In this document: positions 55,037 through 62,803 of the stretch, in pieces
How the letters are laid out: every line of letters starts with the position of its first letter
How positions within the stretch are numbered: the stretch's first letter is position 1
NCBI GenBank assembly: GCA_003220055.1
Contig: QHRF01000012.1
Location: 1-64,000 of the forward strand
Source of the DNA: Verrucomicrobiota bacterium
GTDB taxonomy: Bacteria > Verrucomicrobiota > Verrucomicrobiia > Chthoniobacterales > UBA10450
Length of the DNA: 64,000 nucleotides
Direction of reading: 5' to 3'
Notes under the pieces: model-generated
What the model saw: the letters and a program-made list of their open reading frames with translations, nothing else
Told to the model about the DNA's origin: nothing
Database searches by the model: none
Program-made: the position numbers and the translations under genes

Positions 55037-55480
55037 TTAATCCTTCTGCTCGATTTTAATCCGAAAGTGGTAGGATGAAATGCTCATTCGTTTGGAAAAA
55101 TAAAACCGATGGGCATCGAACCTCTGCACGCCGGAATCGAGCTCGAGATTCTCGCAATCGTGCTCCCGCGCCTGTTCGATTAACCAATCGAGCAATTCAC
55201 CGCCAAAACCACGCGACCGGTCGCTTTCACGTGCGACCAGATCATCGACATAGAAAAACTTTCCCGAAAAAAGCGATTCGAGAAATCGATAGCCAGCGAC
55301 GGCGCGAACTTCGCCTTCGGATTCAAGAAACGCGAGCCGGTAGCCTTCTTTGTGCTGCCGCAGCACTCGCTCGAGAAATTGTTCCGGCTCTTGAAAGAGG
55401 GGCCGCAATTCGCGCATAACTGGATGGCAGCGCCGAATCTGTTCGGGCGTAGTCGCGATGCCGATGCGCGAGTTCCTCAT
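55037..55480 (-). CDS. GNAT family N-acetyltransferase
   Basis: VAGYRFLESLFSGKFFYVDDLVARESDRSRGFGGELLDWL. Confidence 0.88.
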   Translation of the reverse strand: MRNSRIGIATTPEQIRRCHPVMRELRPLFQEPEQFLERVLRQHKEGYRLAFLESEGEVRAVAGYRFLESLFSGKFFYVDDLVARESDRSRGFGGELLDWLIEQAREHDCENLELDSGVQRFDAHRFYFSKRMSISSYHFRIKIEQKD

Positions 55481-56271
55481 GGAGTGGGTCTCGATCTTGT
55501 CTCGCGTTTCCCATCATACCAGATATGAAGGCCCTCACGCGATCGGGCGGCGCGCGGCCCGCGGAGAATGACGCTCAGAGAATTCCCCAGGATTTCGCGG
55601 GCAGAATACATTCGCAATTTGCGACCGGAAGTAACGACCGGTTCCCGCAAGACCCGAAACCGTCCAACCTTTCGCAGCGCCATACTGAAATAGACTTCTT
55701 CTCCGATGAAAAGTTTTTCATCGAATCCACCGATCGCATCGAAATTTTTACGCGTCGTGAAAAGAAAAGCCCCCGCGCCGAACCTGAGGCCGAAGTAAAC
55801 CACGGAGAAAGCTTTCACAACAATCTGCGCCCAGCGCGGAATAGTTCCGCCAACGACGACGTGCGCGCCGCCGCCGGCGTAGCCTGCGTCGAGCGCCGCA
55901 ACTACCCCGATGAGATGTTTCTCGTTAATCCGAGTGTCAGCGTCGACAAAGAGCAAAGTGTCACCTTGCGCATGGCGCGCGCCGGCGTTGCGCGCAGCTG
56001 CAATTTGCCGCCGATTTATTGAAACAACCTTTGCGCCTGCTTCCTGCGCGACTCTCGCAGTCGCGTCAGTCGAAGCATCGTCGACTACGACGATTTCGTA
56101 TTGTTCGCCACGGCCAATCCGTCCTCTGGCGGATCGATCTTGTGCGGCGGCACGAATCGAAGCGATCGTTGATGGCAGTTCCAGCTCTTCGTTGTAAGCC
56201 GGAATAACGAACGAGAGCATCGACTGCACTGTAGCGACAGCCGCGGTCGGCTGCATCTGGTGCGTTTCCAT
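55477..56271 (-). CDS. Family 2 glycosyltransferase containing a repeat-derived insertion
   Basis: MLSFVIPAYNEELELPSTIASIRAAA[QDRSARGRIGRGEQ]YEIVVVDDASTDATARVA. Confidence 0.88.
   Translation of the reverse strand: METHQMQPTAAVATVQSMLSFVIPAYNEELELPSTIASIRAAAQDRSARGRIGRGEQYEIVVVDDASTDATARVAQEAGAKVVSINRRQIAAARNAGARHAQGDTLLFVDADTRINEKHLIGVVAALDAGYAGGGAHVVVGGTIPRWAQIVVKAFSVVYFGLRFGAGAFLFTTRKNFDAIGGFDEKLFIGEEVYFSMALRKVGRFRVLREPVVTSGRKLRMYSAREILGNSLSVILRGPRAARSREGLHIWYDGKRETRSRPTP
56092..56142 (-). repeat. Copy A of a 51-bp dispersed repeat, in frame inside the glycosyltransferase
   Basis: gatttcgtattgttcgccacggccaatccgtcctctggcggatcgatcttg; about 45/51 identical to 59080-59130 by eye. Confidence 0.85.
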
Positions 56272-57344: not shown

Positions 57345-57426
57345 TCAGCCTCCCGTCGGACTGCGCCTGATTAAGTATCGACCGTCGATATGTTGGCATG
57401 GCGGCTGCTATTTCTTGTATACTATT

Positions 57427-57828
57427 ATGAATACGTCCACAGCAAGGTCGCACAGAGGCTTCACCCTCGTCGAAATCATGATCGTCGTTGCGATTATCGC
57501 CTTACTCGCGGCGATCGCGGTTCCGGGTTTCCTCCGGGCGCGCAAACGCTCGCAAGCCAGCCGAATTCTGAACGATCTGCGCATGATCGATTCAGCGTGT
57601 GATCAGTACGCCATTGAAACCAACCGAACAACCGGTGCCACCGTCAACATCGCTGATTGGACGAACTACCTCAAAAAGGGTACGCAGCTTTACAACAGCG
57701 GCAACAGCTTGCTGGGAAGTGCCTATGGTAACCAAGTGGTTGACACTATCCCAACGGTGCCTCCAAACGACTACGCCACGTTGTCGGACGTAGCCGGCGT
57801 GGGCTTTTGGTCGCCCTACGGGCCGTAG
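57427..57828 (+). CDS. Type IV pilin-like / pseudopilin prepilin
   Basis: RGFTLVEIMIVVAIIALLAAIAVPGFLRARKRSQASR prepilin cleavage/methylation motif. Confidence 0.92.
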   Translation: MNTSTARSHRGFTLVEIMIVVAIIALLAAIAVPGFLRARKRSQASRILNDLRMIDSACDQYAIETNRTTGATVNIADWTNYLKKGTQLYNSGNSLLGSAYGNQVVDTIPTVPPNDYATLSDVAGVGFWSPYGP

Positions 57829-58454: not shown

Positions 58455-59099
58455 CTATCGCCCTGATTTTTTTCGGTGGCCGACCATTTCGCCGGCGACA
58501 CTGCGTGGATCAAGGCGGTTAAGATTTTTTTCCATGCTAGATGTGAGCAGCGAAATGTGCGGGATCTCGCAAAGATGTTCGGCGATAAACCAGACCGGCT
58601 TGTTGGTTGTCATCCAATTAAGATGGTCGAAGCGGGCCAGATTCACCGGACGCGAGTAGCGACGCAACGTGCGCTCGAATCGCAGATTGAAATAAATATT
58701 GAAATAGCTCATCGCCAGCTCGCGGAGCGTGCGATAAACCGGCTCGCGATAACGGCAGCCGGTGAAGTTGGACTTGGCGAGCGCGCCCCAATGTCCGCGC
58801 ATTTTAAAAATCGCGACCACGTGATCGGTGTCTTGCTCCGCCTCCAAATCGAAGATCAGCGGCGGAAAGCCAAGGACGCGAAGGGCGGCCGCAGCAAAAA
58901 TTCCACCCTCGAGACAAGATGCAGTTCGTTCGTGCAAAACATGTGCCGGTGAACGCGCGGTGTAACCAAGATTGTAAGGCAGCTCGTCCAAGAAACGTTG
59001 CACGCCGAAAGGCGTTTTTAACCCACGGAACTCGCGCAGTTCGGCGCGGCTTAAACCAAAATCACGCCGAGTAGATGTTGATCTTGTATTGTTCGCCAC
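58455..59099 (-). CDS. Conserved hypothetical, possibly transglutaminase-like fold
   Basis: HVLHERTASCLEGGIFAAAALRVLGFPPLIFDLEAEQDTDHVVAIFKMRGHWGALAKSN; the GTG start lies inside repeat copy B. Confidence 0.65.
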   Translation of the reverse strand: MANNTRSTSTRRDFGLSRAELREFRGLKTPFGVQRFLDELPYNLGYTARSPAHVLHERTASCLEGGIFAAAALRVLGFPPLIFDLEAEQDTDHVVAIFKMRGHWGALAKSNFTGCRYREPVYRTLRELAMSYFNIYFNLRFERTLRRYSRPVNLARFDHLNWMTTNKPVWFIAEHLCEIPHISLLTSSMEKNLNRLDPRSVAGEMVGHRKKSGR

Positions 59100-59130
59100 A
59101 GCGAATCCGTCCTTGGGCGGATCGATCTTG
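59080..59130 (-). repeat. Copy B of the 51-bp dispersed repeat
   Basis: gatcttgtattgttcgccacagcgaatccgtccttgggcggatcgatcttg. Confidence 0.85.
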
Positions 59131-59147: not shown

Positions 59148-59675
59148 TTACAACCCAACCGGGTGCCGGGCTTCGAAACCTCCCGCTGGCACGCGTTCGG
59201 TTGCCTGCCACCCGGGGGCCCAGCGGTCGTGCGCCGTGATATAAGGTGTGGTGTCGAGCCGCAAGCCCGCGATGATGGCGTAAGTGTGGCCATTGCGCGC
59301 GTAAATCGTGATCCATTTGCCGCGACCTTGTTCGCCGAATTTGCGGAACTCCGATGAATTAATCGGCGACTTGAGCAGACCGGCGGCACCGAGCGCATAG
59401 GAGACAGTTCCCGAGCAATCATAACCGCGATCGGCAAACGATTTGTGGCCGCCTCCAAAGACGTACGGTTTACGATGAAGCTGGTTCGCCGCCCAAATGG
59501 CGCGCTTGACTGCGAGCGGCGCACCTTCCGGTGCTGCCGCCTGGCCAAAACGAAGACGAGCGCGCGTTCCAGGCACAGTCGGACCGGAAGCCGGGAAAGG
59601 ATTCGCATTCGCGGATGATGCGATTGCGGCCAAGACAGCCGCGCCAACTAGGATTTTAGGACTCAGGAGATACAC
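59148..59675 (-). CDS. NlpC/P60-like secreted peptidase
   Basis: Signal peptide; KPYVFGGGHKSFADRGYDCSGTVSYALGAAGLL...GNGHTY-like NGHTYAIIAG. Confidence 0.82.
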   Translation of the reverse strand: MYLLSPKILVGAAVLAAIASSANANPFPASGPTVPGTRARLRFGQAAAPEGAPLAVKRAIWAANQLHRKPYVFGGGHKSFADRGYDCSGTVSYALGAAGLLKSPINSSEFRKFGEQGRGKWITIYARNGHTYAIIAGLRLDTTPYITAHDRWAPGWQATERVPAGGFEARHPVGL

Positions 59676-60450: not shown

Positions 60451-61044
60451 ATGATGCGCGTAGCCGCGCTTCTTGGATTTGTCGCGATAATTTTACTCGC
60501 GCAGGAGCCGAACAAAGATCCCGATTCCTTCGACATTGAACCGCCGCTGCTGATTCCAAATCGCGAGGACGAGCAGCTGTCTAATCCGAAACCCGAGTCC
60601 GCTCCCGGGCGAGATGTCGATCTTGCCAAGCTCGAAAAAGAATTGGAGCGCGCCAGAAAAAATGCTGCCAGCGCGGAGCGCCTCTGCAAAATCGGTGCAC
60701 TGTCGAAACTAGAGGCCGAGCAACGAGTTCTGCGTTGCGTTCACCTCGAATTTGACCTCGCTAATGCCCGCTTGGTCTGCGCCAAGGAGGAAATGTTGAA
60801 AAAAGAAAAGCAGGCCACTGCCGGCGAAATTGCAAAGACGGATCTGGCGCAATCCGAAACTGGTCTTGCGCTTGCGATCGAGGCGGCGCATGCCGCGACC
60901 GCGAAACGCGAGCGGGCTGAGATTGATGCGGCCGAAGCCAATGTGCATCGCCAGGAAAAACTTCTCGCGTTCGGCAGAGCGCGAAAATCGGACGTCGAAC
61001 GCGCGGCGCAGAAACTTGCCGAGCTTAAATCGCACAAGGAGTAA
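60451..61044 (+). CDS. Secreted coiled-coil protein
   Basis: Signal peptide; heptad-rich KLEKELERARKNAASAERL... Confidence 0.72.
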   Translation: MMRVAALLGFVAIILLAQEPNKDPDSFDIEPPLLIPNREDEQLSNPKPESAPGRDVDLAKLEKELERARKNAASAERLCKIGALSKLEAEQRVLRCVHLEFDLANARLVCAKEEMLKKEKQATAGEIAKTDLAQSETGLALAIEAAHAATAKRERAEIDAAEANVHRQEKLLAFGRARKSDVERAAQKLAELKSHKE

Positions 61045-61075: not shown

Positions 61076-62803
61076 TCAGTAACCGGCGGCCATTCCGTCT
61101 TTGCGCGATTCGCTCCCGCCAACGTAGACGCGTTGGCCATCGTGCATCTCAATCTTGATCGCTTGATAACCGCCGTAGCCGCCGGCATCGACACGCACGT
61201 CGTGGCCGCGCTTTTTTAATTCGCGCTGCGTCTCAGCGGGAATACCGCTTTCGAGATTCACGTAGCCGCCGTTTTCCATTTTTTCGCCGGTCGGTTCGTT
61301 GTCGCCTTCGTGTTGCCAGCGCGACGCGTCGCCGGCTTCCTGCACATTCAAACCGAAATCGATTTGATTCGTCAGCACTTGCACGTGGCCCTGCGGTTGC
61401 ATCCCGCCGCCCATCACCCCAAACGCTTCCCACGGTTTGCCGCCTTTCATCACAAATCCGGGAATGATCGTATGAAACGGACGCTTGCCCGGCGCGTAAA
61501 CGTTCGCGTGTCCCGGTTCCATCGAAAACAATTCGCCGCGATCTTGAAACATGAAGCCGAGCCCCGGCACGACGATCCCGCTTCCCATGCCGCGATAATT
61601 GCTCTGAATGAGCGAGACCATGTTCCCTTCATCATCGGCCGTGCACATGTAAATCGTGTCGCCTTGATCCAGGTTTCCAGCGGCAACAGTTTTGGCAGCC
61701 CGATTCGGATCAATCAACTTCCGCCGTTCGGTCGCGTATTCTTTCGAAAGCAATTTCGTCAGCGGAATTTTCGCGAACGCGGGATCGGCATAGTATTTCG
61801 CGCGATCAGCCCACGCGATTTTCTTCGCTTCAATCATCGTGTGCAATGTGTCGACCGAATTGCGGCCCATCACTTTCAGATCGAATCCTTCCAAAATGTT
61901 CAGGATTTGCAGCGTCGCGATCCCTTGTCCGTTCGGCGGCAATTCAAAAACATCGTAACCGCGATAGCTCGTCGAAACGGGATCGACCCACGTGCTCGTA
62001 TGTTTTTCAAAATCGGTTTTGCGCATAACCCCCCCGTTCTGCTGCATAAAGATGTCGATCTTGTCCGCGATCTCGCCTTTATAAAAAGCGTCACGACCTT
62101 TCTCACCGATCAATCGCAACGTTTTCGCCAGGTCTGGGTTTTTGAAAATGTCGCCTTTCGCCGGCGTCCGCCCTTTGCCGTCGAGCGTGTAAGTTTCGAG
62201 GAATGCGCCGGGAAGCCCTTTATAGAGCCGAGGACCGAATGCCCAATAGTACGCGATCAACTCTGTGACTGGAAAACCGTCTTCGGCATAATGAATCGCC
62301 GGCGCGAGATCGTCGGCGAATTTCAGTTTGCCGAATTTCTTGTGGAGTTCGGCCCACGCATCGACGGTCCCCGGCACGCTGATCGGCAACATTCCCGTCG
62401 GCGGAATCGTCTTGCGATTCAGTTTGTCGAGCTCGGCTCTCATCTGCTCGTAACTCAAGCCGAGGGCCGAACGCCCGCTCCCGTTGATACCGTAAAGCTT
62501 GTTCTCCTTCGCGCTGTAAATAATCGCAAACAAATCGCCGCCAATTCCGTTTGAAACCGGCTCCATCAAACCGAGTGTCGCATTCGCGGCGATCGCCGCG
62601 TCCACTGCGCTGCCGCCCTTTTTCAAAATGTCGATCCCAACTTGAGTCGCCGCTGGCACGCTTGTGCAGACTATCCCGTGCCGCGCCAAAACTTCCGACC
62701 GTGTCGCGAAGTTTTTCCCGGTAATCCGGTCGACCTGACCGGAGGAGATCGCGGAAAATGCGAACAAGGTTGCGAAAAGAAAAAGGACGCGCATGGATGT
62801 CAT
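61076..62803 (-). CDS. ggt: Gamma-glutamyltransferase
   Basis: GIVCTSVPAATQVGIDILKKGGSAVDAAIAANATLGLMEPVSNGIGGDLFAIIY; DQGDTIYMCTADDEGNMVSLIQSNY. Confidence 0.94.
   Translation of the reverse strand: MTSMRVLFLFATLFAFSAISSGQVDRITGKNFATRSEVLARHGIVCTSVPAATQVGIDILKKGGSAVDAAIAANATLGLMEPVSNGIGGDLFAIIYSAKENKLYGINGSGRSALGLSYEQMRAELDKLNRKTIPPTGMLPISVPGTVDAWAELHKKFGKLKFADDLAPAIHYAEDGFPVTELIAYYWAFGPRLYKGLPGAFLETYTLDGKGRTPAKGDIFKNPDLAKTLRLIGEKGRDAFYKGEIADKIDIFMQQNGGVMRKTDFEKHTSTWVDPVSTSYRGYDVFELPPNGQGIATLQILNILEGFDLKVMGRNSVDTLHTMIEAKKIAWADRAKYYADPAFAKIPLTKLLSKEYATERRKLIDPNRAAKTVAAGNLDQGDTIYMCTADDEGNMVSLIQSNYRGMGSGIVVPGLGFMFQDRGELFSMEPGHANVYAPGKRPFHTIIPGFVMKGGKPWEAFGVMGGGMQPQGHVQVLTNQIDFGLNVQEAGDASRWQHEGDNEPTGEKMENGGYVNLESGIPAETQRELKKRGHDVRVDAGGYGGYQAIKIEMHDGQRVYVGGSESRKDGMAAGY

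What the first reader, a model, noticed from the sequence alone, without database searches (positions are those of the whole stretch)
56092..56142. 51-bp dispersed repeat inserted in frame in a glycosyltransferase
The 51 bp (17 codons) encode QDRSARGRIGRGEQYEI, interrupting the usual short link between the first helix and the YEIVVVDDAS strand of GT-A enzymes. A second copy lies 3 kb away at 59080-59130. It contains an imperfect hairpin (ATCCGTCC...GGCGGAT). In-frame palindromic insertions that add peptide are the hallmark of Rickettsia palindromic elements.
Basis: partly seen in the sequence, partly recalled or inferred. Interest (0 to 1): 0.7.

Follow-up and report, generated by a model that had tools for sequence, protein, structure and literature searches.

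The report
Thirty-base mobile hairpin inside bacterial genes
A tiny 30-base hairpin-forming repeat has spread through the genomes of a family of soil Verrucomicrobia, often landing exactly inside a short "word" that these genomes repeat hundreds of times, and because it is ten codons long with no stop codon in any frame it has repeatedly added ten residues to conserved enzymes without breaking them.

Summary
The repeat is real, but the mobile unit is 30 bp (TTCGCCACGGCGAATCCGTCCTNTGGCGGA), not 51 bp. The other shared bases are the halves of a target word, ATTG^TCGATCTTG. The window's genome holds about 27 copies; three of five congeners have 16-21, two have none. It occurs in 49 of 83 genomes of one Chthoniobacterales family and, in the genomes searched, in no other family of the order.

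The glycosyltransferase insert is exactly 10 residues and is missing from both repeat-free congeners. Exact 10-residue inserts, absent from relatives, also sit in Der GTPase, threonine synthase, aspartate-semialdehyde dehydrogenase, BirA, a GT4 enzyme and an uncharacterised protein. They are read in four frames; all six frames of the consensus are open. Two unoccupied orthologous sites show gap-free insertion without target duplication. At several sites relatives carry the intact word, which is hugely over-represented in this family (about 330 copies of TGTCGATCTTG here, 2,561 in a relative).

Best reading: a non-autonomous miniature mobile hairpin that works like protein-coding palindromic repeats (Rickettsia RPEs, intragenic REPs) but belongs to none of the described families tested, with word-directed, frame-preserving insertion. 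The mobilising enzyme is unidentified; an HUH/Y1 type is a guess.

The parts
56104..56133 (+). 30-bp element, copy 1 (TTCGCCACGGCCAATCCGTCCTCTGGCGGA); read on the minus strand it encodes SARGRIGRGE inside the glycosyltransferase
   Evidence: Constant core across genera; exact 10-residue gap in repeat-free congeners
56100..56103 (+). Left half of the target word (ATTG)
   Evidence: 29 of 43 genus loci have TTG or ATG here
56134..56142 (+). Right half of the target word (TCGATCTTG)
   Evidence: 30 of 43 genus loci match TCGATCTT with at most 2 mismatches
55477..56271 (-). Family 2 glycosyltransferase gene, 264 aa, that carries copy 1
   Evidence: ORF; PF00535 E 1.2e-25; orthologues in five congeners
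59092..59121 (+). 30-bp element, copy 2 (TTCGCCACAGCGAATCCGTCCTTGGGCGGA), intergenic; also at the same place in G001, G002 and G005
59088..59091 (+). Left half of the target word at copy 2 (ATTG)
59122..59130 (+). Right half of the target word at copy 2 (TCGATCTTG)
59148..59675 (-). Gene upstream of copy 2 (175-aa ORF; looks like an NlpC/P60-type cell-wall hydrolase by eye, not searched)
   Evidence: ORF
58455..59099 (-). Gene downstream of copy 2 (214-aa ORF); the longest ORF starts with a GTG inside the element, so the true start may lie further in
   Evidence: ORF

Best explanation
The repeat is a non-autonomous miniature mobile element of exactly 30 bp. SHOWN by comparison: it inserts precisely, without target-site duplication or deletion at the sites resolved; in most copies it follows a G; in this genus it mostly lands between TG and TCGATCTT of a short word dispersed through the genome (ATTG or GATG ^ TCGATCTTG). 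Being ten codons long with no stop in any of its six consensus frames, it adds ten residues when it lands in a gene, in either orientation, and such insertions persist in conserved genes. INFERRED: it moves as a folded single strand (hairpins TTCGCC-AC-GGCGAA and TCCG-t-CC-NNN-GG-CGGA) acted on in trans by an enzyme encoded elsewhere, perhaps of the HUH/Y1 type (about one in three). The insertions are mostly near-neutral selfish DNA tolerated in loops; a benefit to the host is unproven.
For: About 27 copies in G000 and 43 insertion loci in four species. Gap-free empty sites in close relatives for two loci: L008 against G002, L039 against G000. Exact 10-residue insertions absent from relatives in seven genes, read in four frames. 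Intact target word at the empty site in relatives, e.g. CAAGATCGACAATC in G044 for the L060 gene. Right flank matches the word in 30 of 43 loci, p 3e-54 against random window positions. Core constant while flanks change with genus. All six frames of the consensus open.
Against: No mobilising enzyme was found: 30 Y1 transposase loci are not flanked by the core, and some carriers show no Y1 gene, though their assemblies are incomplete. Present-day mobility is not shown; many insertions are shared by several species. Covariation supports hairpin 1 only and folding energy prefers a single long hairpin. Six open frames arise in 18% of shuffled cores, so openness need not be selected.
Confidence: 0.85

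Rival explanations
1. The mobile unit is about 44-51 bp and includes the flanking ATTG and TCGATCTTG, which only resemble the dispersed word by chance or by descent.
For: Flanks are well conserved among copies of this genus; with them the fold is much more stable than shuffles (z -3.6).
Against: Flanks differ in other genera while the core stays constant. Protein gaps are exactly 10 residues, i.e. 30 bp. Joined flanks equal the unoccupied orthologous sequence without a gap, and the word stands at empty sites.
Confidence: 0.05
2. It is an ordinary REP mobilised by the RAYT (Y1) transposases of the family.
For: Size range, palindromy, dispersed copies, in-gene copies as in Opitutus terrae (PMC3733652); Y1 genes in 75 of 83 family genomes; some copies sit directly beside REP-like stems.
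Against: No terminal GTAG tag; the 30 strongest Y1 loci examined are flanked by different inverted repeats and not by this core; G001, G005 and G007 have many copies and no Y1 match, with the caveat of incompleteness.
Confidence: 0.2
3. It is a MITE, a remnant of an insertion sequence with short imperfect terminal inverted repeats (TTCGCCA / TCCGCCA).
For: The ends can pair, TTCGCCA with TGGCGGA.
Against: No target duplication at the resolved sites; far shorter than typical MITEs (70-300 bp, PMC3733652); no parent insertion sequence was found, but none was searched for systematically.
Confidence: 0.15
4. The residues are a conserved functional loop of the glycosyltransferase and the DNA repeat is coincidence.
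For: Four species of the genus share the insert in this gene.
Against: Absent from both repeat-free congeners; the same DNA occurs in unrelated genes in other frames and between genes.
Confidence: 0.01

Closest known systems
Rickettsia palindromic elements (RPE; reviewed in PMC2229807)
   Same: Dispersed palindromic repeat found between genes and in frame inside conserved protein genes; more than one reading frame used; effect on the protein probably near neutral.
   Different: 30 bp instead of 105-146 bp; no 12-bp terminal inverted repeat; clean target word; a different phylum of free-living soil bacteria.
Intragenic GTAG REPs of Opitutus terrae and RAYT-linked REPs (PMC3733652)
   Same: 20-40 bp palindromes, also in frame within genes, also in a verrucomicrobium.
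   Different: No GTAG tag at an end, and Y1 transposase genes of this family are not flanked by this core.
CGTC-tagged REPs, including RPE-4, RPE-6 and Neisseria dRS3 (PMC3733652)
   Same: Short stem-loop with a CGTC nearby, no dedicated transposase known, in-gene copies.
   Different: Here CGTC lies 3' of the first hairpin and within the second one, not unpaired at a terminus; no 8-9 bp stem starting with AT; no CCA tail.
Double hairpin elements of fungal and other mitochondria (recalled; papers listed not read)
   Same: Two adjacent short hairpins in a small G+C-rich repeated unit.
   Different: Organelle genomes; no sequence relation tested.
DNA uptake sequences of Neisseriaceae and Pasteurellaceae (PMC3630211, title and abstract only)
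   Same: The target word resembles them: about 10-12 bp, both strands, genome-wide, hugely over-represented, in genomes with a ComEC-type gene.
   Different: Uptake function untested; different word; here it serves as the landing site of the element.

Membership tests
Rickettsia palindromic element (RPE) | Palindromic repeat inserted in frame in conserved protein genes, absent from orthologues | tested here: met
   Seven genes with exact 10-residue inserts, missing in relatives
Rickettsia palindromic element (RPE) | Length 105-146 bp with about 12-bp terminal inverted repeats | tested here: not met
   Unit is 30 bp; its ends pair over 6-7 imperfect bases (definition PMC2229807)
Rickettsia palindromic element (RPE) | Sequence homology to an RPE family | not tested
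   No RPE sequence was fetched for comparison
GTAG REP | Unpaired GTAG (or close variant) at one end of the stem-loop | tested here: not met
   Consensus TTCGCCACGGCGAATCCGTCCTNTGGCGGA has none at either end
GTAG REP | RAYT gene flanked by the repeat | tested here: not met
   0 of 30 Y1 loci have the core within about 1.5 kb; nor do the two Y1-like loci of G000
CGTC REP | Unpaired terminal CGTC, 8-9 bp stem beginning with AT, 4-5 base loop, CCA tail | tested here: not met
   CGTC is internal, stem is 6 bp, drawn loop AC, no CCA tail (definition PMC3733652)
MITE | 70-300 bp with 15-30 bp terminal inverted repeats | tested here: not met
   30 bp with 6-7 imperfect end pairs (definition PMC3733652)
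MITE | Target-site duplication | tested here: not met
   Gap-free empty sites and exact 10-residue gaps
HUH/Y1 (IS200/IS605-like) mobility | Insertion 3' of a fixed short sequence without duplication; terminal or subterminal hairpins | tested here: inconclusive
   No duplication and a G before 91 of 99 non-word copies are consistent; the enzyme is unidentified
HUH/Y1 (IS200/IS605-like) mobility | Single-strand excision and insertion by the enzyme | not testable with these tools
   Needs biochemistry
DNA uptake sequence (the target word) | Massive over-representation on both strands | tested here: met
   TGTCGATCTTG: 327 in G000 and 2,561 in G037; pattern read backwards 0 in each
DNA uptake sequence (the target word) | Enhances uptake or transformation | not testable with these tools
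   ComEC-type gene present in all five genomes searched, including one with very few words, so its presence does not discriminate

The most novel reading that the evidence does not exclude
The element's insertion is directed by an abundant dispersed word of its host genome. In this genus that is an uptake-signal-like word, TGTCGATCTT, so integration may be coupled to the single-stranded stage of natural transformation or to the protein that reads the word; in other genera it is other repeated sequence, such as the edge of REP stems. It would be a miniature element that uses a DNA-uptake-like sequence as its landing site.
Probability: 0.3. Interest if true: 0.85.

Novelty: new variant of a known kind. 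Interest (0 to 1): 0.68.

Why it matters
Protein-coding palindromic repeats are known mainly from Rickettsiales and from intragenic REPs, including those of Opitutus terrae. Here a lineage of soil bacteria has a minimal one: exactly ten codons, open in six frames, with clean empty sites in close relatives and a sharply defined target word. Insertion site, size and direction can be read to the base. It offers natural ten-residue insertion variants of Der, BirA, threonine synthase and other enzymes to assay, and it ties a mobile repeat to an uptake-signal-like word in Verrucomicrobia that I could not find described in the open library.

Tried and rejected
Rfam at gathering threshold: no match in the window. 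RAYT adjacency: the core was sought around 30 Y1 transposase loci; they have other flanking inverted repeats. Idea that all targets are palindromes: true flank pairs form slightly better stems than shuffled pairs (mean 3.28 against 2.91, shuffle maximum 3.17), driven by a few copies; too weak to claim. One long hairpin or two: energy favours one, covariation favours the first of two; left open. Six open frames as a sign of selection: 18% of shuffled cores are also open, so not claimed. Plasmids: no match; phages: one weak 24-base match; IMG/VR: one contig. Empty-site searches for three other single-species loci gave only poor or partial alignments. Literature: no paper found in the open library that describes this element or an uptake word in Verrucomicrobia.

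Full report
OBSERVATION. The two 51-nt stretches are present at the stated coordinates, 88% identical. A 25-base consensus pattern from them finds only these two places in the window, with none expected by chance. The first copy is in frame in a family 2 glycosyltransferase (PF00535, E 1.2e-25) encoded on the minus strand, 55477-56271. The second copy is intergenic.

EXTENT AND NUMBER. Searches of the window's own assembly (2.08 Mb, 148 contigs, 80% complete) and of its five congeners found about 27 copies in G000, 21 in G001, 20 in G002 and 16 in G005; G003 and G004 have none. By flank similarity the 84 copies fall into 43 insertion loci, many shared by two to four species, some seen in one only. 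In the wider family 49 of 83 genomes and 8 of 14 genera have it at E <= 1e-6, and of 213 genomes of the order no genome outside this family is among the 49 with a match.

THE UNIT IS 30 BP. Across genera the constant part is TTCGCCACGGCGAATCCGTCCTNTGGCGGA; outside it the flanks change with the genus. The glycosyltransferase of the repeat-free congeners is exactly 10 residues shorter at this point. Two empty sites show it at base level: the G000 copy in L008 is unoccupied in G002 (GGAAGATG^TCGATCTT) and the G005 copy in L039 is unoccupied in G000. Both align without a gap, so 30 bp were gained with no target duplication and no deletion. In the window the element is therefore 56104-56133 and 59092-59121.

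TARGET. In this genus 30 of 43 loci have TCGATCTT, with at most two mismatches, directly to the right of the element, against 0.7% of random window positions (binomial p 3e-54); the left flank ends in TTG or ATG in 29. Joined, the flanks read ATTG^TCGATCTTG or GATG^TCGATCTTG. This is the most over-represented 10-base word of the window (TGTCGATCTT 28 times; GTCGATCTTG 19 times against 0.36 expected). TGTCGATCTTG is present 327 times in G000 and 2,561 times in relative G037; the pattern read backwards occurs 0 times in each. The word stands at unoccupied sites in relatives: for the L060 gene G044 has CAAGATCGACAATC and G037 AAGATCGACAATC; for GT4 G037 has CAAGATCGACATC; for threonine synthase G007 has GATCGACAATC; for aspartate-semialdehyde dehydrogenase several relatives have CAAGATCGACAATC beside the insertion point. 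The glycosyltransferase's repeat-free congeners G003 and G004 do not have the word there, so at the window's own site the word is inferred from the joined flanks. In other genera the element follows G (91 of 99) and precedes a pyrimidine (90 of 99), in a looser CARG^YTRG-like context, in some cases between a REP-like stem and CTA. Loci whose copy has word-type flanks contain the word about three times as often as the others (3.7 against 1.1 per 10 kb).

IN-FRAME INSERTIONS. Thirty bases are ten codons, and the consensus is open in all six frames, also with the word around it. Seven genes of G000 carry it and lack it in relatives, with ten extra residues: the glycosyltransferase; Der/EngA in its KH-like domain (empty in G005 and in the repeat-free relatives); threonine synthase (empty in G002, G003, G004); aspartate-semialdehyde dehydrogenase (occupied in G000 only, among those seen); BirA (empty in G001, G002); a GT4 glycosyltransferase (length near the site varies a little among relatives); and an uncharacterised 240-residue protein, in which G002 has a different, longer insert. 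The residues differ with frame and strand: SAKGRIxRxE, PPKDGFAVAN, RQRTDSxxRT, FATASPSGGG. Two more reading frames (a DegT aminotransferase end and a peptidoglycan-binding protein) look occupied but were not checked against orthologues. Copies of other lengths occur (about 27 to 33 bp) but not among the seven verified genes. The AlphaFold model of the glycosyltransferase has low confidence (mean pLDDT 63); it places the insert between helix 1 and strand 2, in a loop.

STRUCTURE. Two hairpins can be drawn: TTCGCC-AC-GGCGAA and TCCG-t-CC-NNN-GG-CGGA. The most variable bases lie mainly in the two drawn loops. Hairpin 1 shows compensated changes, for example CTCGCC..GGCGAG, GTCGCC..GGCGAC, TCCGCC..GGCGGA (5 cells against 1.3 in shuffles); hairpin 2 shows none. 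Free-energy folding prefers a single imperfect hairpin with the ends paired, made longer by the word halves in the genus consensus. I do not decide between them.

MECHANISM. Shown by comparison: precise, duplication-free insertion, mostly inside a dispersed word, tolerated in genes. Inferred: the element is non-autonomous, since 30 bp can encode no enzyme, and it moves as a folded single strand. An HUH/Y1 enzyme is a natural candidate for insertion 3' of a fixed base without duplication (general knowledge of IS200/IS605); such genes occur in 75 of 83 family genomes. None of the 30 loci examined is flanked by the element and several carriers, in incomplete assemblies, show no Y1 gene, so I give this enzymology about one in three. 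The effect on proteins is probably near neutral, in line with the RPE in Rickettsia guanylate kinase, which is translated and leaves an active enzyme with changed substrate affinity (summarised in PMC2229807).

KNOWN RELATIVES. By behaviour this is a protein-coding palindromic repeat like the Rickettsia RPEs and the intragenic REPs; the latter are most numerous, for the GTAG kind, in another verrucomicrobium, Opitutus terrae (PMC3733652). By the defining features tested it is not an RPE, a GTAG or CGTC REP, or a MITE (membership table). Hence: new variant of a known kind. The link to a dispersed, uptake-like word is the least expected part.

Noticed in passing
window, 28 places (e.g. 60615-60624 +, 62053-62062 +); G000 whole assembly; G037 C4:1-200000 (L338-L347): The word TGTCGATCTT is over-represented like a DNA uptake sequence. 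In 200 kb of G037, TGTCGATCTTG occurs 167 times while single-base neighbours at positions 1-10 occur 0-4 times each; density varies from 2 to about 900 copies per Mb across genera of the family. I found no description of it in the open library.
   Followed up: partly
L337 518-548 (IMG/VR contig IMGVR_UViG_3300049984_000018): The only viral contig with the element has it inside an open frame of 272 codons, reading FATANPSGGG, the same frame and nearly the same peptide as in aspartate-semialdehyde dehydrogenase of G000. It may be a provirus of this family.
   Followed up: partly
L179-L208 (Y1 transposase loci): The Y1 (RAYT-like) genes of this family are often flanked by other inverted repeats, such as TAGCCTGGGGCAACGCCCC and AATAGCCCAGCGTTT, which look like ordinary REPs; some copies of the 30-bp element sit directly beside such stems.
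   Followed up: partly
L224, L225, L245 and L019 matches: A small variant group has base pair 1-14 changed to C-G or G-C (T-G in L019); in L019 and L225 a word in the opposite orientation (CAAGACCGAC or CAAGATCGAC) follows directly, hinting at a second mode of insertion.
   Followed up: partly
L250 (G002, L060-type gene): Where its congeners carry the element, G002 has a different longer insert (NPEMIGAGEGFRS) directly after the intact word AAGATCGACAA, as if the site attracts other insertions.
   Followed up: no
window 57415-57828 +: Type IV pilin-like gene (FTLVEIMIVVAIIALLAAIA signal), possibly relevant to DNA uptake; judged by eye only.
   Followed up: no
L069, L096 (QIAB01, bin labelled Acidobacteria gp1 AA140): Exact matches in a bin labelled Acidobacteria; contamination by Verrucomicrobia contigs is likelier than transfer, but this was not tested.
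   Followed up: no
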